Position numbers and translations under genes: made by a program
Notes under the pieces: generated by a model
What the model was told of the DNA's origin: nothing
Databases searched by the model: none
Seen by the model: the letters and a program-made list of their open reading frames with translations, nothing else
Shown here: positions 8,418 through 24,802 of the stretch, piece after piece
Position numbering within the stretch: the first letter of the stretch is position 1
How the letters are laid out: each line of letters opens with the position of its first letter
Source: a virus
Length of the DNA stretch: 32,445 bases
IMG/VR virus record: IMGVR_UViG_3300032092_000142
Location: 1 to 32,445 of that record
Direction: 5' to 3' (one strand)

Positions 8418-10256
8418 ATGGCCGGCATTTTTGACCAAATTATCAACTATTCCCCCCCGCTGATTGTTAGCGGCACGGTCAATTACAAAGGGACATGGAA
8501 TGCTTCGACAAACAATCCCACCCTAAACAACCCGCCTGCGGCTTCTACCAAAGGCGACTATTACGTTGTTAGCGCGGCTGGCACGCAGTTTAGCATTACG
8601 TTTGCAGTGGGCGACTGGATTATCAGCAACGGCACGGTTTGGGAAAAGGTGGATTTGACGGACGCTGTTTCCAGCGTCTTCGGGCGCACTGGCGCGGTGG
8701 TTGGTGTAAGCACCGACTATTCCGCTGTTGGCCTTACAAACACGGCTATTGGGGCAGCAAACCCCGCAGCAGGGTCGTTCACCACGCTTGGCAGCAGCAG
8801 CACGACGACGCTCAACGGTACGACTATTCCCGCAAGCTCGACGCTATTGGTGAGCGGCGGCGCATTGGGTACCCCTGCGTCTGGGACGGTGACAAACCTG
8901 ACGGGTACGGCGTCAATCAACACCAACGGAGCGCATAACGGCACGGTGGGAGCCACGACACCGAGCACGGGCGCGTTTACGACGCTTTCGACTAACTCAA
9001 GCAACGGCGTAACCACTCTTGAGTCTCCCGGCACCTCTTCGGTTGGCTTGCAGTTCCGAACCAACTCCAACAACCGATTCAAGATTGAGACGCCATCGGC
9101 GAGCGCGGACCTTGCCTTCTATTCAGCCGGAACAACTGAGGTCGCTCGGCTATCCTCCACCGGCCTCGCCGTGACCGGGGCGTTGTCGGCGACGGGGTCC
9201 CTCACAACTACGACAGGTAGCTTTTTTGGTGTGGCTGGGACCTTTGTTTTGGCGGCGGGCGCAGAAGGACTTGTTTTCGGCAGTTCAACGGCGGCAATTC
9301 TTCGCGCCCCTTCCGGCACATCGAGCCTGCGCGTCGGAAACACTGATATAGCCAGCGCCTCCTCCACCGGCCTCGCCGTGACGGGGGCGTTGTCGGCGAC
9401 GACAGGCACGTTTAGTGGAATCTTAAGCACCTCATCGGACTATCGTCTCGGCGGTTTTAGTTTTTTGAGAACGGCTATCAGCACCGGCAGCGGTTGGCTA
9501 GGAGGCTACAACATTACGTTTTCTTCTGGCGTTAAACACGACAGCACCGGAGCAATTGCTGGTATTAACTATGTAGATGACGGCACGGTAAAAGTTTACG
9601 GTGGGACAAGTCAAACGGCTGGAACTGTTGTAACTCCAGTCGCCACCTTCTCCTCTACCGGCCTTGCCGTGACGGGAGGAATAACGAGTACTGGCGTCAC
9701 TTTAGCCAACGGAGCCATTGGAACTTCCTATTCGTATAAAGGGCTTCACGCAACTGGGCCTCAGTTTTTTGGCTACGACAACGTAGTAGGAAACACTTAT
9801 GGTGGCGGCGTTCGCGGCTATTCGGTAGCAGGGCAAGGCGGTTATGTCGCGCTCGGCACAATTCAGAATAACACATGGGTTCCTGCGCTTACGATTGACC
9901 ATCTTAATGCCGCTACTTTTTCATCCGGCCTCGCCGTGACTGGCACGCAAAAGCTCGTCGAAACAGTAACCGTAAATTCCTCAACGCAGACAATTGTGAC
10001 CAATTCCACTGAGGGTGTTTCTGGATTGTGCTGGATTCGTAATGCGTCGGTGGGCGGGCAGGCACTTGTGTTGTGGGATATTTCTCACGGCCTCACAATT
10101 GTATCCCAGCTCGGTTCTATTTTTACGACCAGCTCGCCGTCCGCTACCCAGATTCAACTTTCAGTTGCAGGATCATCACCCTACTACGTTCAAGCAATCG
10201 CGGGCGCAACTCGCAACGGAAATTCCCTAAGCATCTCGGCAATCAACAATCAATAA
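8418..10256 (+). CDS. Tail fibre protein 1
   Basis: The 612-residue protein is rich in Gly, Ser, Thr and Ala with few charged residues, typical of trimeric fibre shafts. The N-terminal ~90 residues hold a small carbohydrate-binding-like or capping domain (YKGTWNASTNNPTL, then KGDYYVVSAAGTQFS and VGDWIISNGTVWEKVD), followed by the widespread fibre motif SSVFGRTGAVVG. The shaft repeats NPAAGSFTTLGSS, TPSTGAFTTLS and four versions of STGLAVTGALSAT. No C-terminal chaperone peptidase (SGNH/Intramolecular chaperone) is visible. It probably binds the host receptor. Confidence 0.85.
   Translation: MAGIFDQIINYSPPLIVSGTVNYKGTWNASTNNPTLNNPPAASTKGDYYVVSAAGTQFSITFAVGDWIISNGTVWEKVDLTDAVSSVFGRTGAVVGVSTDYSAVGLTNTAIGAANPAAGSFTTLGSSSTTTLNGTTIPASSTLLVSGGALGTPASGTVTNLTGTASINTNGAHNGTVGATTPSTGAFTTLSTNSSNGVTTLESPGTSSVGLQFRTNSNNRFKIETPSASADLAFYSAGTTEVARLSSTGLAVTGALSATGSLTTTTGSFFGVAGTFVLAAGAEGLVFGSSTAAILRAPSGTSSLRVGNTDIASASSTGLAVTGALSATTGTFSGILSTSSDYRLGGFSFLRTAISTGSGWLGGYNITFSSGVKHDSTGAIAGINYVDDGTVKVYGGTSQTAGTVVTPVATFSSTGLAVTGGITSTGVTLANGAIGTSYSYKGLHATGPQFFGYDNVVGNTYGGGVRGYSVAGQGGYVALGTIQNNTWVPALTIDHLNAATFSSGLAVTGTQKLVETVTVNSSTQTIVTNSTEGVSGLCWIRNASVGGQALVLWDISHGLTIVSQLGSIFTTSSPSATQIQLSVAGSSPYYVQAIAGATRNGNSLSISAINNQ
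9153..9948 (+). repeat. Near-identical DNA repeats within fibre 1 gene
   Basis: A 42-bp segment at 9153-9194 recurs at 9360-9401 with one mismatch; shorter diverged copies lie at 9651-9680 and 9922-9948. All encode versions of STGLAVTGALSAT. Such identity is higher than protein conservation needs and makes in-frame recombination possible. Confidence 0.8.
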
Positions 10257-16048: not shown

Positions 16049-19000
16049 ATGCCTTACGACCCACAGACAGGCGAGTATATCCCCGATATGGGGCCAAGTT
16101 CGTCCAATGTTCCAAAATCCAATTCTTTTGGTTTTGACCCCGGCCAATCTACTCGTGACTATCTTGCAGGCGTAGCTAATCCAGAGACGCTTTCAGCCCT
16201 CCTTGGAGCCGAAGCTGCGGCACGTCCTCAGTTGGGTGCTCAGGGACTTAGAGACCTTAGCCAATTTCAGTCAGGTGCACCACAATTTAATGTTCAGGCG
16301 TTTCTTGCCGCTCGGCCCGATATCCTCAATAATTTCAACAATGCTAAGGATGACTATTCCAGAATGTATGGAGGTCTTGAGCAATACGCTAAGGCTGCTG
16401 CTGACGCCGAAGGGCTTACACCTCAGTTTACAACTACCCAAGGTGGTAGCCTCGATCTTCTAAAACAAGCTGCTGGTGTTACGAGTGGCATAGAGACGGC
16501 GGCAAATACCGCCCTACGAACAGCGGGAGCGGCAGATGTTGCTGCTTTGGCTCCTCAACTTGCAGCCACCTACAATCAACTAAACCCAGAGATTCAAGCG
16601 AGCTTACAACGCGCTGAAGGTTTGAGTCGAGTTCCTGATGCCTATGCCCCAATGCGGACGGCGGCTTTTAATGCTCAACAATTTAATGATCTTCAGTTCA
16701 ATCCAGCCCAAGCCTCCCTGTTGGGTAGTGCTCCGCAAGTAGATTTAGGTGGATACAACGCCGCACAAGTTGGGGCTCAGAGTTACAATCCCACACAGGC
16801 TTCTGCACAAGGTTATAACGCGGCCCTAGCGCAGTCTCAGGGCTACAATGCCCAACAAGCCTCGGCTCAAGGCTACAACGCTGCTCTAGCCCAATCCCAA
16901 GGCTACAATGCCGCATTAGCTCAATCCGAAGGCTACAACGCCGCTTTAGCTCAATCTCAAGGCTATAACGCTCAACAAGCACAGTCTCAGGGTTACAATG
17001 CTGCTCTAGCCCAATCACAGGGCTATAACGCTCAACAAGCACAGTCGCAAGGCTACAATGCCGCTCTAGCTCAATCGCAAGGTTATGACGCTGCACAGGC
17101 CCAATCACGCGGCTACGATGCTGCTCTAGCTCAATCACGAGGCTATGACGCTGCTCTAGCTCAATCACGCGGTTACGATGCTGCACAGGCTCAATCGCAA
17201 GGCTATCAATCTCAAGGCTACACCCCACAAGGCTATCAAGCTGCTCAAGCTGGTGCTGGTATGCAGACGGAGGCTGAGCGTTTGGCCCGTGGCAAACTCG
17301 GTGAATCGCTTTACGCTCAAGCCTTACAGGCTGGGCCAAGTGCAGCCGCTCAATTGCTTGGTAGTCGTGCGGCAGAATTTGCCGCTAGCACAGGTCAGCT
17401 TTCCCCTGAAGAACTGAGAAACATTCAGCAAGGCACCCGCGAAGCCTATGCTGCGCGTGGTATTGAGATGAGTAATCCAGCCATTGCTGCTGAGGCTGCT
17501 GCACGATCCGGAGCAATGCGTCAACGTCAGGCTGAAGACCTAGCTCAAGCTGCTGCTCTCAATCAGGCTTATACCCAAGACCTTTCCGCCAATCGTCAAT
17601 TTGGCACAGGTCTCTATGGTCAGGAAATTGGATTGCAGCAATCCAACCAACAGGCCGCGCTTCAGGCTGCTCTTGCCAACCAACAGATAGGTCAAAACTT
17701 GTCCTTGGCCAACCTTCAAGCCGTTAACCAAGCTGGTCAATTTACCGCTGGTTTGGGTGCTGAGGCTGCTCAGTTTGGGGCTAATGCAGCCAATCAATCC
17801 GGTCAGTTTGCGGCTACTGCTGCAAATCAGGCTGCGTTACAGAATGCTCAGTTAGCTTCTCAGGCTGGTCAGTTTGGAGCTAGTGCATTTAATCAAGCTG
17901 CAATCCAGAACGCTCAAAACATTTCTCAAGCAAATCAGTTTGAAGCAGCTTCCGCTAATCAAGCGGCCATACAGAACGCTCAGAATCTCTCTCAGGCTAA
18001 CCAATTTGGAGCCGGTGCCTTTAATCAGGCTGCAATAGAAAACGCTCAACTAGCTTCTCAAGCTGGTCAATTTAGAGCGTCTGCATCTAATCAGGCCGCA
18101 TTGCAGAATGCCCAAAACATCTCTCAAGCTAACCAATTTGGAGCTAGTGCGTTTAATCAGGCTGCAATTCAAAACGCTTTGCTTGGCTCTCAGGCTGGCC
18201 AGTTTGGTGCATCTTCAGCCAATCAAGCTGCATTGCAGAATGCTCAGAACATTTCTCAGGCCAACCAGTTTGGAGCTGGTGCGTTTAATCAGGCTCAGTT
18301 GCAAAACGCCTTGCTCGGCTCTCAAGCCAACCAGTTTGGTGCATCATCCGCAAATCAAGCTGCTTTACAAAACGCTCAAAACATTTCTCTGGCCAACCAG
18401 TTTGGGGCATCATCCGCCAACCAAGCTGCAATTCAGAACGCTCAGAACATCTCCCAAGCCAACCAATTCGGGGCATTATCCGCAAACCAAGCAGCTATAC
18501 AAAATGCTCAGAACATCTCCCAAGCCAATCAGTTTGGAGCTGGCGCACTAAACCAAGCTGCTTTGCAAAATGCGCTACTTGGCTCGCAGGCCGGGCAATT
18601 TGGCGCATCTGCCTTCAATCAGGCTCAATTACAGAACGCTCAGAACATCACTGGAGCCAATCAATTTGGTGCTGGGGCTCAAAATCAAGTATCCCTTGCC
18701 AATCAAGCGGCGTTTAATCAGGCAGGTCAATTCGGGGCTGGAGCCCAGAACCAAGCCAATCTTGCCAACCAAGCTGCGCTTAATCAAGCAGGTATGTTCC
18801 GAGCTGAGGCTGGCAATCAAAGCCAGCTTACAAATGCTCAGCTGCAAGCTCAGTATGCAATGGCCAATCAGGGCGCGGCCAATCAGTTCTCTCTTGCCAA
18901 TCAAGCTGCGGGCATGGACGTTAATGCTCAGAACCGTTTGTTTGCCGCCAATCAGCAACAGCAGAACATCTCCAACCTTGGTCTAATTGGACAGGCTGAC

Positions 19001-19771
19001 TCGGCCACCGCTGAAGCTAACAGGGCTTATGCCCTCAACTTGGCCCAAGGCTATCGTGGCGCGGCGTATGACCCAACGGCTATGCTGCTAGGTCAACAGA
19101 GCAATGCCGGTCAAACCGCTGCTCAACAGCAAGGATATGCTCTGGACTTGGCTAAGACGTTTAACACCCCCACAACTTACAATCCAGACACGGGTATTAA
19201 CTTGGCGTTGGCCAATCAGGCTAACATCACCAACCGGGACATTGCCCAGCAGTCCGCTGCTGCTCAATTGGCGGCTGCTAAGGCTGGTGCCTCTGCTACA
19301 AAGACTTCTGGTGTTGCGGGCGGTGTTGGCAGCATTATTGGCGGTGTGCTTTCAGGTAAAATTTTCTTGAAATGTATTCCAGAGGGCGAACTTATTGACA
19401 CACCAGAAGGTCAAGTGGCCATTGAGGACATCCGTTCTGGTGATAGCGTCATTGGCTTCTCTGGTGAACCCGTTAAGGTGCTCATTAAACATGAGTATGC
19501 CGAAAACCCAGAAGCCGAACGCTTCCATCGTTTCTACCTTGATAATGGCAAGGACTTCTCTGTATGCGATATGCACCGCATTGAAGGCGAACGCTCGATG
19601 GACTACAATGTGGGGAACAGCTTTAAGGGCGGCGAAGTTGTTGAAGCCATCGCTGTCTATGGCGGCGTCAGCCGTTCCTATGACTTGTTGACGGAAGACA
19701 TAGGCTATCGTATGTCTGGCGTAGCTGTTAACAGCATGATTGAAGAACTTGCCGCCTTCTCATCCACCTAA
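16049..19771 (+). CDS. Giant repeat-rich internal/ejection protein with C-terminal Hint domain
   Basis: The start at ATG 16049, 4 nt after the fibre stop, gives 1240 residues; a longer in-frame start at 15983 would overlap the fibre gene by 62 nt. The order is: N-terminal region (1-234); 15 decapeptide repeats of GYNAALAQSQ type (235-384); a Gln/Ala-rich helical stretch; 15 repeats of 22 residues of NQAALQNAQNISQANQFGA type (593-922); an AAQ-rich helix; a Gly-rich hydrophobic segment (GVAGGVGSIIGGVLSGK, ~1088-1104); and a Hint domain from C1109 to N1228 with a 12-residue tail. The architecture and place before two more giant proteins fit a virion-internal ejection protein. Hint domains cleave or splice their host chain, so self-processing is likely. 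Confidence 0.75.
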   Translation: MPYDPQTGEYIPDMGPSSSNVPKSNSFGFDPGQSTRDYLAGVANPETLSALLGAEAAARPQLGAQGLRDLSQFQSGAPQFNVQAFLAARPDILNNFNNAKDDYSRMYGGLEQYAKAAADAEGLTPQFTTTQGGSLDLLKQAAGVTSGIETAANTALRTAGAADVAALAPQLAATYNQLNPEIQASLQRAEGLSRVPDAYAPMRTAAFNAQQFNDLQFNPAQASLLGSAPQVDLGGYNAAQVGAQSYNPTQASAQGYNAALAQSQGYNAQQASAQGYNAALAQSQGYNAALAQSEGYNAALAQSQGYNAQQAQSQGYNAALAQSQGYNAQQAQSQGYNAALAQSQGYDAAQAQSRGYDAALAQSRGYDAALAQSRGYDAAQAQSQGYQSQGYTPQGYQAAQAGAGMQTEAERLARGKLGESLYAQALQAGPSAAAQLLGSRAAEFAASTGQLSPEELRNIQQGTREAYAARGIEMSNPAIAAEAAARSGAMRQRQAEDLAQAAALNQAYTQDLSANRQFGTGLYGQEIGLQQSNQQAALQAALANQQIGQNLSLANLQAVNQAGQFTAGLGAEAAQFGANAANQSGQFAATAANQAALQNAQLASQAGQFGASAFNQAAIQNAQNISQANQFEAASANQAAIQNAQNLSQANQFGAGAFNQAAIENAQLASQAGQFRASASNQAALQNAQNISQANQFGASAFNQAAIQNALLGSQAGQFGASSANQAALQNAQNISQANQFGAGAFNQAQLQNALLGSQANQFGASSANQAALQNAQNISLANQFGASSANQAAIQNAQNISQANQFGALSANQAAIQNAQNISQANQFGAGALNQAALQNALLGSQAGQFGASAFNQAQLQNAQNITGANQFGAGAQNQVSLANQAAFNQAGQFGAGAQNQANLANQAALNQAGMFRAEAGNQSQLTNAQLQAQYAMANQGAANQFSLANQAAGMDVNAQNRLFAANQQQQNISNLGLIGQADSATAEANRAYALNLAQGYRGAAYDPTAMLLGQQSNAGQTAAQQQGYALDLAKTFNTPTTYNPDTGINLALANQANITNRDIAQQSAAAQLAAAKAGASATKTSGVAGGVGSIIGGVLSGKIFLKCIPEGELIDTPEGQVAIEDIRSGDSVIGFSGEPVKVLIKHEYAENPEAERFHRFYLDNGKDFSVCDMHRIEGERSMDYNVGNSFKGGEVVEAIAVYGGVSRSYDLLTEDIGYRMSGVAVNSMIEELAAFSST
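16751..17200 (+). repeat. 15 tandem 30-bp (10-residue) repeats
   Basis: Exactly 15 units of 30 bp run without a single indel. The protein consensus is GY(N/D)AALAQSQ, with Gly-Tyr at every unit start except the second, which has Ser-Tyr. Late units change Asn to Asp and Gln to Arg, giving a gradient along the array. Confidence 0.95.
17825..18814 (+). repeat. 15 tandem 66-bp (22-residue) repeats
   Basis: Fifteen units of 66 bp, no indels, consensus NQAA(L/I)QNAQNISQANQFGASAF. The two 11-residue halves both place small or apolar residues at matching positions, so the array reads as hendecads in a long helix. DNA copies differ at many third positions, so selection acts on the protein length and pattern. 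Confidence 0.95.
19373..19732 (+). other. Hint (hedgehog/intein-type) domain region
   Basis: Residues 1109-1228 of the giant protein. Block A: C1109 then IPEGELIDTPEGQVAIEDI and RSGDSVIGFSGEPVKVL. Block B: VCDMHRIEGE with H1176. C-terminal blocks: SYDLLTEDIGYRMSGVAVNS, ending in N1228-S1229. This matches the Hint fold order (nucleophile Cys at position 1, His for the N-S acyl shift, terminal Asn). The residue before the Asn is Val rather than the usual His. At 120 residues there is no room for a homing endonuclease. Confidence 0.85.
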
Positions 19772-19786
19772 ACTTTCTTAAACACA

Positions 19787-21385
19787 ATGATTGGAAGCTC
19801 CGTAAATCCCGCCCTAGGTCGCATTGACTACTCCCCTATCACACAGGGGGCGCAATCTGCTGCACAAAGCATTCAAGCTGGTGGTCAAGCCTATGGAAAT
19901 ATGTTTGCCAATCTTGGCCAACAAATCGGTAGTGGCATCCAGCAATATCAGAAGAATAAAGAGGAGCGCGATTTTTTTGTTACAACCGTAACAAACAGAA
20001 TTGGACAAGTCAAAAAAGCCTATGATGAGTTTAAGTTAAATCCTAATCTTTATGGCAAGGAATTTCCGGTTAAAGAAGATTTTTTTAAGAATCTTCCAAT
20101 TGGAGATATTCCCAATATGCCGATAGGTAAGCTCAAGTCTCTTGCTAATGAATATGACGGAATCCTGCAAGACACGCGTGGTGCCTTAGCTAAGGCTAAT
20201 GCTATTCGTCAAGCCGAAAGAGATATAAAATCTATTGCTGAAAACAAATTCTTTACAGATGCTTATTCCGCCGCGCAAAATCTGACGGTTCCAATGGGGG
20301 TTAGCACAACCCTTAAGACAAGCTATCAAACCCCCACGCTGCAAGAGGGTCTTACCAATCTTTCTCGCCTTAACTATGGTAAAGCAGTAAAAGAGGGCGG
20401 TGTTATTTCTGGCGGTAAGTTTAATAGGCCCAATTTCAACTCAGTTCCAGAAAGCATTAAGGATTTTATTAACGTTAACGCTAAGACGGGTGCCGCTGAA
20501 CTCCTGACGGAAAAGATTGCTAATTTCAATAGAACCGCAGATCAAGCCATTAAGGTGAGGGACAATTATGGAACCATCCTTGAGCGAGGAACACGCCCAG
20601 ACTTTAAGGTTGAGTCATTTGCCGGTGGTGTAGGCGGTGGATTTCGCAGAACACCAATTGAAAAGCCACTTACGGAAGAGGAAAAGATTGCAACTAATGA
20701 TCTTTACAGATCGTCGCAAGCGCAAGTTGCTAGGATTCAAGAAACCAGAAGGGCCATTGATGAAGCGCGCAAGTTCGTTGAAAGAGACGCCAAGGGTGCA
20801 ACTCCCGCTGAAATCAAGACCTATATCTCTAAAGACCCCAATCTCACTCCGTTGCAATTTGCATCGTTTGAGTTTGTTACAAAGCCTGAGTTTCGCAATG
20901 CTACGGCTCAAGAAAAAACAGATAAGGTTCTCAATGAATACATTAAACAAGGCGGTGAAATATCTCCTGATTTCTTGGCTAAAGTTAAGACTGCATTTAA
21001 AACTGATATTGAAAAGACTGATTTAGGTGGTGGCAAGGTAGCCATTACTTATGGCAACAGTCTTACAGTTGTTGATACTAATAGAAAAAATGAACGTGTT
21101 CCGCTTGGGGAAATCAAAAAATTTGAGCAAGATAACTATCAAGCCCTTCTAAACAAAGCAGTTACTACCTATCCTTCTTGGGATAAGGTTCCAGATGACA
21201 TTAAAGCACTTCTAGCTAGTTTAACAGATGTGTATGGCGGAAATGATAATTTGGGCATGAAAATGTCTGCGACCGTTGCCTTCAATAATCGACGCGAAGT
21301 TCTTCGCGGCACACCATCTCCAGCAGCTCAAAACCCAATGCTGTCTCCTCCGAGCGGATTTACTCTTACTCAAACCCGGCGATAA
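19787..21385 (+). CDS. Putative internal virion/ejection protein 2
   Basis: The 532-residue protein starts 15 nt after the previous gene. The N-terminus (NPALGRIDYSPITQGAQSAA, then GNMFANLGQQIGSGIQQYQK) is an amphipathic Gly/Ala/Gln helix, as in several phage internal proteins that insert in membranes. The rest is mixed helical and basic-acidic with no enzymatic motif visible. Together with its two large neighbours it forms a trio like the T7 gp14-15-16 or P22 gp7-16-20 ejection sets. That comparison is by size, order and composition only. Confidence 0.6.
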   Translation: MIGSSVNPALGRIDYSPITQGAQSAAQSIQAGGQAYGNMFANLGQQIGSGIQQYQKNKEERDFFVTTVTNRIGQVKKAYDEFKLNPNLYGKEFPVKEDFFKNLPIGDIPNMPIGKLKSLANEYDGILQDTRGALAKANAIRQAERDIKSIAENKFFTDAYSAAQNLTVPMGVSTTLKTSYQTPTLQEGLTNLSRLNYGKAVKEGGVISGGKFNRPNFNSVPESIKDFINVNAKTGAAELLTEKIANFNRTADQAIKVRDNYGTILERGTRPDFKVESFAGGVGGGFRRTPIEKPLTEEEKIATNDLYRSSQAQVARIQETRRAIDEARKFVERDAKGATPAEIKTYISKDPNLTPLQFASFEFVTKPEFRNATAQEKTDKVLNEYIKQGGEISPDFLAKVKTAFKTDIEKTDLGGGKVAITYGNSLTVVDTNRKNERVPLGEIKKFEQDNYQALLNKAVTTYPSWDKVPDDIKALLASLTDVYGGNDNLGMKMSATVAFNNRREVLRGTPSPAAQNPMLSPPSGFTLTQTRR

Positions 21386-21388
21386 TTT

Positions 21389-24300
21389 ATGCAAATCACA
21401 GCTCCTTCTGGTCGGGTCTATCAATGGAACAAGCCCACTGAGCCAACCAAGGAAGATTACGATGCTTTGCAACGCTATGATGATTCATTAAGCAATGCAA
21501 AGCCTAAACAATCTGGCCTTGGTCAAACTGCTGCCGACATAGGCATTGAGGTAGGGCTTGGTATTGGTGGTCAAGTAGCCGGGGCTGCTCTTGCTCCGCT
21601 TACTGGCGGCGCGTCCATTCCTGTCCTTGGTGGTATAGGCGCGGGCATTGGTAATACACTTGTTCAAAAGGGCCAAATTCAGCGTGGTGAACGTCCCGAC
21701 TTTTCATTTGGAGAACTAGCTTCTGCCATTGGGCTTGGTGCAATTCCCGGTGGAAAGGCTGCTCAAGCTGGAGGGAGTGTTCTTAAAAACATGGGTGTGC
21801 GTGCGGCTCAAGGTGCTGGTCTGGCTGGAGCTGGAGAGATTGCAAGGGTGGCTATTGACCAAGGGCGACTTCCTACGGCTGAAGAGTTCACTACGGCTCT
21901 TGCTGGAGGTTCTATTACGGGTGGTGCGCTAGGTGGCCTAGAACAGTCGATTACGACCCGTTTAAAGACCAATCCCCTGTTTCGTGAGCAACGGATAGGG
22001 TCGGAGATAATTGATGCCTTAAAACGCATTGACGGTGAAAAGAACGCCATTTCAGAAGAAGGCCGAGTTCTCATCTCTGAATTGGATAAGAAACTTAGGG
22101 GCATTAAAGACCCCGCAGTTCGCGCTGATTTAGATTTTAAAGTAAACCAAGTGCTTGGTGGCAAAATCAATCAAACCAACATCCCAGAAGATTTTGCCGC
22201 AATAACTACTGCTTTGCGTAAAACTACCGACGATGCAACTGGTCGTTTAAAAGACCTAGGAATTATTGAAAAGGACGAAGCCCTTTACAGCACGCTGACC
22301 GATAATGAAGGAAGTTATCTTCGACGCGCTTATAAAATACTTGCCGTTCCGGGATGGAGGCCAAGCAAAGAGTCATTCAACAAGTGGGTTACGCAGAATG
22401 TTGAGAATGATATGAGCAATTGGACTGGTTTGAAAACAAAAAAGCTCCTTAGCATTAAGGATGCAAATGACCAAATTGCTGCTGAACGGGCTAAGCTCAC
22501 TCAAAAATACACTAATAAGGCCAATGAATTATTGGACAGAGATAATGCCACCGCTTATTTAACGCAGGGGAGGGTATCAACAAATACCGGCATATTTAGA
22601 AAACGTAAGAACATTGACCAAGCCACTCGTGAATTGCTTGGTGAAATTCAAGACCCTGTATTTGTTGCCAGCGATACTCTTGGACGCATGACGGGAACTG
22701 AAGCTACCTATAAGGGGCTCAGTGAAGTAAGGCGCATCGGTTTAGATTCTGGTATTTTTCGCCAAAACAAATCCATTGAAGGCGATGTAATGATTGCACC
22801 CAAAGGAGATAAGTTCAATCCACTAAGCGGATTGTGGACAAGTCCAGAGTTTAGAGATGAGTTTAATAAATATAACGCAAATGATCTTGGTCCGATTATG
22901 AGCAAGATGAGTGGTCTTGCAATTGTATCCAGCGCAGCTAAAATTCCAAAGACTCTTTTTTCATTAAAAGGCTGGGCGTCTAACGCATGGGGCGGACCGC
23001 TAGATGTAATTGCACAAGGTCATGGTTTGGAGTTATTGAAAAAAGATAATTACAACCAAGCATTAAAAAATGCTGGTTATCAAATTGGGTTTATTAAATC
23101 AGATGGCTCTGTATCCGCAAAGGAGGCTCAGGAATTCTACAAGGGAATGTTGAGATATAACTTGATAGAACCCAATGTTCAATTCTCGGATTTTCTAAAC
23201 ACTTTTGAGATTGCTGAGGGTCAGTTTAAAAATCCGCTACTTGTTAAAACTGCAAGCAAGGCAAAGTCTGGGCTTGGCACCATAGGTAAATTTTACTCTA
23301 TGCCAGCAACATCTAGCAAAGTTTTTAATTTGGCTGGAGAGTTACAGGATATGCGTGCGGCATTTCCAAACGAGTCTCCCGATGTGATATTTAGAAAAGC
23401 CGCTGAACGCACACGCATGACAACGGAAGGATATTCCAATCTTCCAAAAGCTATCCGCGATTTTTCTTCCGTTGGATTTTTAGACCCATTTGTCGCTTAC
23501 ACTGCCGACCGTTTCCGCGTTGTTTACAATACTTACAAGTTAGCATTGGAGGATATGAATAGCGGTAATAATGTTTTGCGTAAGGCTGGGGCTAAACGCA
23601 TGGCCGCAATGACGACAACACTAGCGGCTGCTGGAGCCTTGGGATTAAATACCGATATATCAAAAGAAGAGGAGGCTGCCGTAAGAAATAGACTGCCTGA
23701 ATGGGATAAGGATTCTTTTATTAAGATTAACAAGGCAGACGACGGCTCATACACCTACACCAATCTTAACTACAATATTCCCCATACGATTGTAATGGAG
23801 GCCGCGTTTGCTGCTCTCAACCAAGAAAACCCGCAGGATGCGATGAAGAAATTCATCTCTGTTGCAAGCAAGCAAGCGTTTGGCCAGAACCTTTTGCTCG
23901 CTCCGCTAACTGAAGTTTACACGGGTAAGACCGGCAGGGGGGTGCCAATTAGCAGTGAGAACGACCCAGACTACAAACAGTTTATCGACAAGTCTGCTTA
24001 CTTTATTAACGAAGCATTTACACCACTTGTCATTAAGGAAATAAACAAGGGTTATAACGCATTGAAAGCCGAGCAGTCCAGTATTAAACCCTCTAGTCCC
24101 AATGCCCCAAAGATTGAAGACATTCTGTTGTCCAATCTTGCTGGTATCCGTATTCAACGTGTCAATCCAAGGGAGCAGATGAAGTTTCAAGCTGCTGGAT
24201 TCTCCCGCGATTTGGTCAACGATCAAATTGCTTTCTCTTCCGAGAAGCGTAGAGCCCTTGATGAAGGAGAGACGGCTAAAGCATTTGATAGGTTCTCTGG

Positions 24301-24802
24301 TCGCTACAAATCTACCTACGACAAGGTTGCAGGCGTTGTTAACGATGCTCGCGTTCTTGGCCTTACAGACGACGAGATTGCTAAGACGCTCAAAGATGGA
24401 AGGGTGCCCACCGCCATTGCTCTTGGTGCAATTAACGGAACCTACGTTGCGCCTGAGCCTGACAACGAGAACTCACCCAAGATGCTTTACGAAAAGATTC
24501 AGGCATTACCAAGGGGCGATCAGGAGCGGGCGTTGCGTCAGCTCATTTCACAGAAGCCTGACATTGGTAAAAGTCTAGTGTCTCGATTTAGACAGGACGC
24601 TAGAAACGAAGCATTGAACATTGGTGAGGTGGACAAACTGCTCTTGGCTCAGTCCGCCGAGGACGGGGAGCGAGCCATGTTCATCAATCGTAAGCTGGCA
24701 ACAATTCAGGAAGACTACAAGAAACAAATCTACCTGAATGACTTGCGTAAAAAGAAAATCCTAACCCCACAGGTTGAGGTTCAGATGATTGCTTACAGGT
24801 AG
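21389..24802 (+). CDS. Putative large internal virion/ejection protein 3
   Basis: This is a 1137-residue protein that starts 3 nt after its upstream neighbour. It opens with a short ITAPSGRVYQWNKPTEPTKE segment, a motif seen at the N-terminus of some phage internal proteins. A glycine/alanine-rich hydrophobic stretch follows (residues ~50-170; VGLGIGGQVAGAALAPLTGG, then VLGGIGAGIGNTL), able to insert in membrane. The remaining ~950 residues are helical, including an AKIPKTLFSLKGWASNAWGG segment. No lysozyme, transglycosylase or protease signature was found by eye. It is the last gene of the late operon. Confidence 0.6.
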   Translation: MQITAPSGRVYQWNKPTEPTKEDYDALQRYDDSLSNAKPKQSGLGQTAADIGIEVGLGIGGQVAGAALAPLTGGASIPVLGGIGAGIGNTLVQKGQIQRGERPDFSFGELASAIGLGAIPGGKAAQAGGSVLKNMGVRAAQGAGLAGAGEIARVAIDQGRLPTAEEFTTALAGGSITGGALGGLEQSITTRLKTNPLFREQRIGSEIIDALKRIDGEKNAISEEGRVLISELDKKLRGIKDPAVRADLDFKVNQVLGGKINQTNIPEDFAAITTALRKTTDDATGRLKDLGIIEKDEALYSTLTDNEGSYLRRAYKILAVPGWRPSKESFNKWVTQNVENDMSNWTGLKTKKLLSIKDANDQIAAERAKLTQKYTNKANELLDRDNATAYLTQGRVSTNTGIFRKRKNIDQATRELLGEIQDPVFVASDTLGRMTGTEATYKGLSEVRRIGLDSGIFRQNKSIEGDVMIAPKGDKFNPLSGLWTSPEFRDEFNKYNANDLGPIMSKMSGLAIVSSAAKIPKTLFSLKGWASNAWGGPLDVIAQGHGLELLKKDNYNQALKNAGYQIGFIKSDGSVSAKEAQEFYKGMLRYNLIEPNVQFSDFLNTFEIAEGQFKNPLLVKTASKAKSGLGTIGKFYSMPATSSKVFNLAGELQDMRAAFPNESPDVIFRKAAERTRMTTEGYSNLPKAIRDFSSVGFLDPFVAYTADRFRVVYNTYKLALEDMNSGNNVLRKAGAKRMAAMTTTLAAAGALGLNTDISKEEEAAVRNRLPEWDKDSFIKINKADDGSYTYTNLNYNIPHTIVMEAAFAALNQENPQDAMKKFISVASKQAFGQNLLLAPLTEVYTGKTGRGVPISSENDPDYKQFIDKSAYFINEAFTPLVIKEINKGYNALKAEQSSIKPSSPNAPKIEDILLSNLAGIRIQRVNPREQMKFQAAGFSRDLVNDQIAFSSEKRRALDEGETAKAFDRFSGRYKSTYDKVAGVVNDARVLGLTDDEIAKTLKDGRVPTAIALGAINGTYVAPEPDNENSPKMLYEKIQALPRGDQERALRQLISQKPDIGKSLVSRFRQDARNEALNIGEVDKLLLAQSAEDGERAMFINRKLATIQEDYKKQIYLNDLRKKKILTPQVEVQMIAYR

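What the first reader, a model, noticed from the sequence alone, without database searches (positions are those of the whole stretch)
19373..19771. Hint autoprocessing domain at the end of a giant phage ejection-type protein
The sequence shows the ordered Hint blocks: Cys1 (residue 1109) with IPEGELIDTPEGQVAIEDI, a GDSVIGF strand, CDMH with H1176, YDLLTEDIGYRMSGVAVNS and a terminal Asn-Ser with only 12 residues after it. Hint domains self-cleave or splice (intein, BIL and hedgehog families). In this phage it follows directly on a Gly-rich hydrophobic segment. Inference: self-cleavage frees or matures the ejection protein, perhaps unmasking the membrane-active segment at assembly or ejection. 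The replacement of the penultimate His by Val makes C-terminal Asn cyclisation less certain, so N-terminal cleavage is the likelier activity.
Basis: partly seen in the sequence, partly recalled or inferred. Interest (0 to 1): 0.85.

Follow-up and report, generated by a model that had tools for sequence, protein, structure and literature searches.

The report
Self-removing Hint cap on phage protein
The last 132 residues of a large phage structural protein form an intein/hedgehog-type (Hint) fold that very probably cuts itself off; relatives either lack it, ending where the cut would fall, or carry a different self-cutting domain there, so it looks like a removable end-cap placed after a greasy, possibly membrane-active stretch.

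Summary
Confirmed: window 19373-19768 encodes a complete Hint fold (AlphaFold2 about 96 pLDDT over the core; Z 16.7 to inteins and hedgehog) as the C-terminal 132 residues of a 1240-aa phage protein. Cys1 and the block-B His are invariant in every relative found. The domain is under strong purifying selection (dN/dS about 0.06).

One reading needs correcting. 'Asn-Ser' is not a terminal Asn followed by a +1 Ser. In structure and sequence, Asn sits at the penultimate-His position and Ser at the terminal-Asn position. Asn cyclisation and splicing are therefore unlikely; N-terminal cleavage remains, as in hedgehog or B-type BIL domains.

New evidence. In three unrelated protein backbones, Hint-bearing and Hint-free alleles coexist, and the Hint-free ones end near the Cys1 position. 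In one backbone the Hint is swapped for a Peptidase_S74 (self-cleaving) domain in a 77%-identical protein. A Lys at -5 (17 of 18 distinct upstream stretches; -6 in the other) accompanies the Hint and is missing from the Hint-free tails. Two Verrucomicrobia MAGs carry the same domain on short lipoproteins.

Best reading: a single-turnover, self-removing C-terminal cap on a probable ejection-core protein. The fold is shown; cleavage and the ejection role are inferred.

The parts
16049..19771 (+). 1240-aa phage protein (decapeptide and ~22-aa repeats, hydrophobic tail, C-terminal Hint); only two Cys in the chain, C1109 and C1173, both in the Hint
19271..19372 (+). Gly/Ala hydrophobic segment before Cys1 (most hydrophobic 15-mer of the protein: VGSIIGGVLSGKIFL)
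   Evidence: sequence
19358..19360 (+). Lys codon at position -5 from Cys1 (K1104); Lys at -5 in 17 of 18 distinct Hint-bearing upstream stretches, absent in Hint-free tails
19373..19768 (+). Hint domain, residues 1109-1240
19373..19375 (+). Cys1 (C1109), predicted N-S acyl shift nucleophile; invariant
19565..19576 (+). Block B C-D-M-H (C1173..H1176), equivalent of intein T-x-x-H; His invariant, Cys replaced by Ser once (L110)
19679..19696 (+). Block F Y-D-L-L-T-E (Asp1212 invariant); no His at the position of the intein F-block His
19730..19735 (+). Asn1228-Ser1229: Asn at the intein penultimate-His position, Ser at the terminal-Asn position
19787..21385 (+). Second gene of the block (532 aa), conserved downstream partner
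21389..24802 (+). Third, giant gene of the block (1137 aa), distant match to virion structural proteins

Best explanation
The domain is a single-turnover, N-terminally cleaving Hint module used as a removable C-terminal cap. Cys1 attacks the preceding peptide bond (N-S acyl shift), helped by the block-B His, and the thioester is resolved by water or a small nucleophile. This frees the 132-residue cap and leaves the phage protein ending in its Gly/Ala hydrophobic stretch, which is how its Hint-free homologues are made from the start. The C-terminal half of intein chemistry is lost (His-Asn replaced by Asn-Ser, F-block His absent), so no splicing and no Asn-driven C-terminal cleavage. The probable purpose is to keep a membrane-prone tail of an ejection-core protein soluble or assembly-competent until the cap comes off. 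Shown: fold, conserved N-terminal catalytic residues, missing C-terminal residues, optional module at a fixed place, swap with Peptidase_S74. Inferred: that it cleaves, when, and the ejection role.
For: Hint fold with Cys1 at intein residue 1 and the end of the alignment at the intein terminal residue. Cys1 and block-B His invariant in every relative. dN/dS about 0.056. Hint-free alleles of the same protein end near the Cys1 position: window lineage, L112/L129 versus L130, L080 group versus L141. Hint replaced by Peptidase_S74 in L135, 77% identical to L083 to within about 20 residues of the junction and with the same next gene. Preceding hydrophobic segment is usually the most hydrophobic of the protein. 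Hint protein is followed by a mid-size and then a giant protein in several phage types, as T7 genes 14-15-16. B-type BIL domains, which lack the C-terminal motif, cleave at the N-terminus (PMC7765530).
Against: No cleavage data. The block-B Thr is Cys/Ser here. The residue before Cys1 is not conserved (K, L, A, R, Y, G and others). The residues after Asn-Ser (M-I-x-E) are conserved, so the end of the domain has a role not explained by N-cleavage alone. No sequence similarity to T7 gp14/15/16. The window lineage's Hint-free alleles carry a PAPS_reduct gene at the junction, so that site is a cassette swap rather than a plain loss.
Confidence: 0.66

Rival explanations
1. Acyl-transfer Hint, hedgehog-like: the thioester made at Cys1 is passed to a specific nucleophile, so the mature protein gains a modified C-terminus. 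The conserved Lys at -5 could itself be the acceptor (a small C-terminal lactam) or link to a neighbouring subunit.
For: Lys at -5 in 17 of 18 distinct upstream stretches on unrelated backbones, -6 in the other, against about 3% Lys elsewhere; absent from Hint-free tails. Hedgehog, a top structural match, uses only the N-S shift.
Against: AlphaFold2 places Lys -5 in a low-confidence stretch; Lys could simply be needed for docking or for charge next to the greasy segment. One member has it at -6.
Confidence: 0.14
2. Non-cleaving Hint: the domain keeps the fold but works as a structural or trimerisation/chaperone cap that stays on the virion protein.
For: Fold is robust, Ser/Asn replace the C-terminal catalytic pair, and a conserved tail follows Asn-Ser.
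Against: Cys1, the first residue of the domain and right after a variable stretch, is invariant, as is the block-B His; a purely structural role gives no clear reason for this. Replacement by Peptidase_S74 argues for removal.
Confidence: 0.15
3. Degenerate mini-intein, a genetic parasite lodged at the gene end with no benefit for the phage.
For: Hint domains spread as inteins in phages; the module is present or absent among close relatives.
Against: dN/dS about 0.056; no C-extein domain, no terminal Asn, no endonuclease; same position in several unrelated backbones; Lys -5 co-conserved.
Confidence: 0.05

Closest known systems
B-type bacterial intein-like (BIL) domains
   Same: Hint fold, Cys1, block-B His, intein motifs except the C-terminal one; lie in variable regions of non-conserved proteins; N-terminal cleavage reported for the type (PMC7765530)
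   Different: Always C-terminal here, with few residues after the domain; C/S instead of T in block B; invariant N-S-M ending; Lys at -5; hosts are phage structural proteins and two lipoprotein-like ORFs
Hedgehog Hog domain (1at0)
   Same: Among the best structural matches (Z 16.6-17.3); C-terminal; N-S acyl shift only, no terminal Asn
   Different: No room for a sterol-recognition region; residue -1 is not a fixed Gly; acceptor unknown; 14% identity
Class 1 and 3 inteins (MsmDnaB-1 6bs8, MchDnaB-1 6rix, Mtu RecA)
   Same: Same fold; N-terminal blocks A and B
   Different: No terminal Asn, no penultimate His, no F-block His, no functional C-extein
Peptidase_S74 intramolecular chaperone (endosialidase type)
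   Same: Occupies the same C-terminal position in homologous phage proteins (L133, L135); known as a self-cleaving C-terminal module (from general knowledge)
   Different: Unrelated fold and Ser-based chemistry; an analogue, not a homologue
T7 internal virion proteins gp14-gp15-gp16
   Same: Gene order: first protein, then mid-size, then giant, closely spaced
   Different: No detectable sequence similarity; T7 gp14 has no Hint

Membership tests
Hint superfamily | Hint fold | tested here: met
   AF2 core pLDDT ~96; VIA Z 16.7-17.3, rmsd 1.7-1.9 over 116-120 residues
Hint superfamily | Block A Cys/Ser1 and block B His | tested here: met
   Cys1 and His68 present in all family members collected
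Pfam Hint_2 (PF13403) | Score at or above the curated gathering threshold | tested here: not met
   24.8 bits against 28.4, N-half only
Intein (class 1) | Terminal Asn (Gln/Asp) with assisting His | tested here: not met
   Ser at the terminal position, Asn at the penultimate one, in every member
Intein (class 1) | C-extein to be ligated | tested here: not met
   Only 11 residues follow Asn-Ser in the window
B-type BIL | Intein motifs kept except the C-terminal motif | tested here: met
   Blocks A, B and F recognisable, C-terminal His-Asn replaced; definition from PMC7765530
B-type BIL | Clusters with known B-type BILs by sequence | not tested
B-type BIL | N-terminal self-cleavage | not testable with these tools
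   Needs protein chemistry
Hedgehog Hog domain | Sterol-recognition region after the Hint | tested here: not met
   The chain ends 11 residues after Asn-Ser in the window, so there is no room for that region; sterol transfer itself untested
Podophage ejection proteins (T7 gp14-16 type) | Sequence homology | tested here: inconclusive
   hhalign probability 1% or less for all pairs; such proteins diverge fast
Podophage ejection proteins (T7 gp14-16 type) | Three-gene order of rising size among the late genes | tested here: inconclusive
   A block of three closely spaced late genes ending in a giant one is present, but in the window the first gene (1240 aa) is the largest, unlike T7 gp14 (196 aa)

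The most novel reading that the evidence does not exclude
A family of Hint domains that uses a dedicated substrate lysine five residues before Cys1 as the acceptor of the thioester, giving ejection-core proteins a lactam or inter-subunit isopeptide C-terminus while the Hint cap is shed; that is, self-catalysed C-terminal transamidation of a virion protein.
Probability: 0.08. Interest if true: 0.92.

Novelty: new variant of a known kind. Interest (0 to 1): 0.66.

Why it matters
Phage Hint domains in the papers found here are inteins in enzymes such as terminases. This one appears to be a domesticated self-removing end-cap on structural proteins that are candidates for delivery into the host envelope, in a slot that relatives fill either with nothing or with a Peptidase_S74 domain. 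If cleavage is confirmed, it gives a timed, protease-free way to keep a membrane-active phage protein inactive until needed, an example of two unrelated self-processing chemistries solving the same problem, and a minimal N-cleaving Hint for protein engineering. The lysine at -5 makes a specific hypothesis about the reaction's acceptor directly testable.

Tried and rejected
(1) Isolated phage and plasmid records: no family member found; weak hits are inteins of terminases, helicases and portal proteins, and the apparently full-length portal match (L121) proved to continue into intein/endonuclease sequence. (2) Homology of the host protein and its two neighbours to T7 gp14/15/16 by hhalign: nothing. 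(3) 388 genomes of the Verrucomicrobia phylum: apart from G001 only weak partial hits, so the bacterial form is rare. (4) Intein with Asn-Ser splice junction: rejected on the structural register. (5) A folded contact for Lys -5: the second AlphaFold2 model gives no confident structure there. (6) IMG/VR pattern hits L057, L062, L064, L065, L116, L118, L119 are chance matches or other Hint/intein proteins. (7) Error of mine: the first AlphaFold2 job folded L100, not the window, because of the row order; the second job folded the window.

Full report
WHAT IS THERE. The window belongs to a 32,445-base virus record of IMG/VR. The gene at 16049-19771 encodes 1240 aa with decapeptide-like and ~22-residue repeats, a Gly/Ala hydrophobic stretch, and a C-terminal domain at 1109-1240. 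The chain contains only two cysteines, C1109 and C1173, both in the Hint; five Hint-free homologues contain none.

IT IS A HINT FOLD. Sequence evidence on the single domain is modest: Hint_2 E=3e-5, below the gathering score. A profile of 20 relatives reaches an engineered intein at 1.2e-4 and the C. thermocellum BIL domain at 3e-3. Structure evidence is strong. A relative (L100) was predicted with ~96 pLDDT over residues 1-120 and the window's own domain similarly. Foldseek and VIA-align return inteins, BIL and hedgehog domains at the top, Z 17.3 and 16.7, rmsd 1.7-1.9.

REGISTER OF THE C-TERMINUS. For many inteins the aligned range runs from Cys1 to the last intein residue (MchDnaB-1 145, Mtu RecA 440, gp41-1 125, GyrA 198, Npu DnaE 137, PI-SceI 454; that these are the terminal Asn residues is partly from general knowledge), paired with model residue 46 (Cys1) to 166, which is Ser121 of the domain (same). 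Only first and last aligned residues are reported, so this is an inference from many consistent rows, but the spacing agrees: inteins have Gly then Asn at +5, and here Gly then Ser at +5 (G-V-A-V-N-S). A few rows (for example the BIL2 entries) end one or more residues later. So Asn1228 occupies the penultimate-His site and Ser1229 the terminal-Asn site, in every family member. The F-block His is also missing (by eye, from the alignment). Steps that need Asn cyclisation should not work; the N-S acyl shift residues (Cys1, block-B His) are invariant.

FAMILY. IMG/VR holds 17 close relatives (92-100%), about a dozen diverged ones at roughly 48-58% identity and a few more distant, and there are two bacterial MAG loci (Verrucomicrobia, L100/L101) where the Hint follows a lipobox-like signal and a short hydrophobic stretch. 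No isolated phage or plasmid record had it. By blastp the host backbones fall into eight groups with no detected similarity between groups. dN/dS within the close group is about 0.056.

NATURAL EXPERIMENTS. (a) In the window's own lineage, otherwise syntenic phages end the same protein without a Hint (...ALVAF*...IVAL*), within a few residues of the Cys1 position, and carry at the junction a 267-aa PAPS_reduct gene, in one case plus a SET-domain gene. None of 11 Hint-bearing records of this lineage that were searched has PAPS_reduct and none of ten Hint-free records has the Hint (many are fragments). (b) In a second backbone, L129 reads ...GYGAIFAKAFLY|CIPEG and its 51%-identical relative L130 reads ...GYGLMAGSLMV* with the same next gene. 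(c) In a third backbone, members end in Hint (L080, L083), in nothing (L141), or in Peptidase_S74 (L133 just above the Pfam cut-off, L135 just below). L083 and L135 are 77% identical over ~450 residues and share the next gene. A Hint and an S74 domain are thus interchangeable at this position. S74 domains are known as self-cleaving chaperones (general knowledge; not tested here), which argues that what matters is a removable end.

LYS -5. Among 18 distinct upstream stretches from eight unrelated backbones, Lys is at -5 in 17 and at -6 in the other, against ~3% elsewhere in those stretches. Hint-free tails lack it at the matching place. It therefore goes with the Hint. The set is not phylogenetically independent (eight backbones, so roughly 7 of 8). 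It may be a docking residue, a charge break in the hydrophobic stretch, or the acceptor of the thioester; nothing here decides.

CONTEXT. In further Hint-phage contigs examined (L080, L086, L099, L117), the Hint-bearing protein is followed by one or two mid-size proteins and then a giant one (1359-1609 aa), and in L110 by a mid-size one before the contig ends (window lineage). This is the order of T7 genes 14, 15, 16, whose products are ejected to form the envelope channel, gp14 going to the outer membrane (PMC8954989). Sizes differ: the window's first protein is 1240 aa, T7 gp14 is 196 aa. Profile comparison finds no sequence similarity. The ejection role is therefore an inference from gene order and the hydrophobic tail.

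MECHANISM AND CONFIDENCE. Hint fold: ~0.97. N-terminal self-cleavage: ~0.7. Removal of a cap that masks a membrane-active tail of an ejection protein: ~0.5. B-type BIL domains are the nearest described type by motif pattern (PMC7765530), but no clustering with reference BILs was done, so membership is not claimed.

LIMITS. No biochemical or proteomic data; all these phages are metagenomic contigs; the ends of alignment ranges, not coordinates, give the register; the paper library is partial, and searches there found Hint domains in phages only as inteins. UniProt-based names in BFVD show that Hint proteins of uncultured phages are already annotated as such.

Noticed in passing
L027 10484-11287; L031, L047, L050, L053 at the same junction: Hint-free relatives carry a PAPS reductase-family gene (PF01507 E=4.5e-9) starting on the stop codon of the structural gene; an alternative cassette at the site the Hint occupies. 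Its role in a late operon is unexplained.
   Followed up: partly
L053 10968-11360: A small SET-domain gene (PF00856 E=6e-10) sits beside the PAPS_reduct gene in one relative.
   Followed up: no
L100 5830-6435 and L101 5758-6414: Verrucomicrobia MAG lipoprotein-like ORFs: lipobox, short hydrophobic stretch, Lys -5 and the same Hint; self-cleavage would release a very short lipopeptide.
   Followed up: partly
window 16250-18900 and L019-L053: The repeat-bearing protein varies from 636 to 1240 aa among relatives with conserved ends, by changes in number of decapeptide and ~22-aa repeats.
   Followed up: no
window 8418-10256: A 612-aa tail-type gene is conserved only in its first ~130-190 residues among relatives, suggesting a variable host-recognition part.
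   Followed up: no
window 19373 and 19565: The only two cysteines of the 1240-aa chain are Cys1 and the block-B Cys; a disulfide between them could act as a redox lock on cleavage (hypothesis; one relative has Ser instead).
   Followed up: no
L129 2751-4145: Hint member with an insertion in block F (LLTESIGHPVTTTGYRIN).
   Followed up: no
window 21389-24802: Giant last late gene is distantly related to a protein of Pseudoalteromonas phage vB_Pun_Y3 annotated as ADP-ribosyltransferase and to a Cellulophaga phage phi13:2 virion structural protein.
   Followed up: partly
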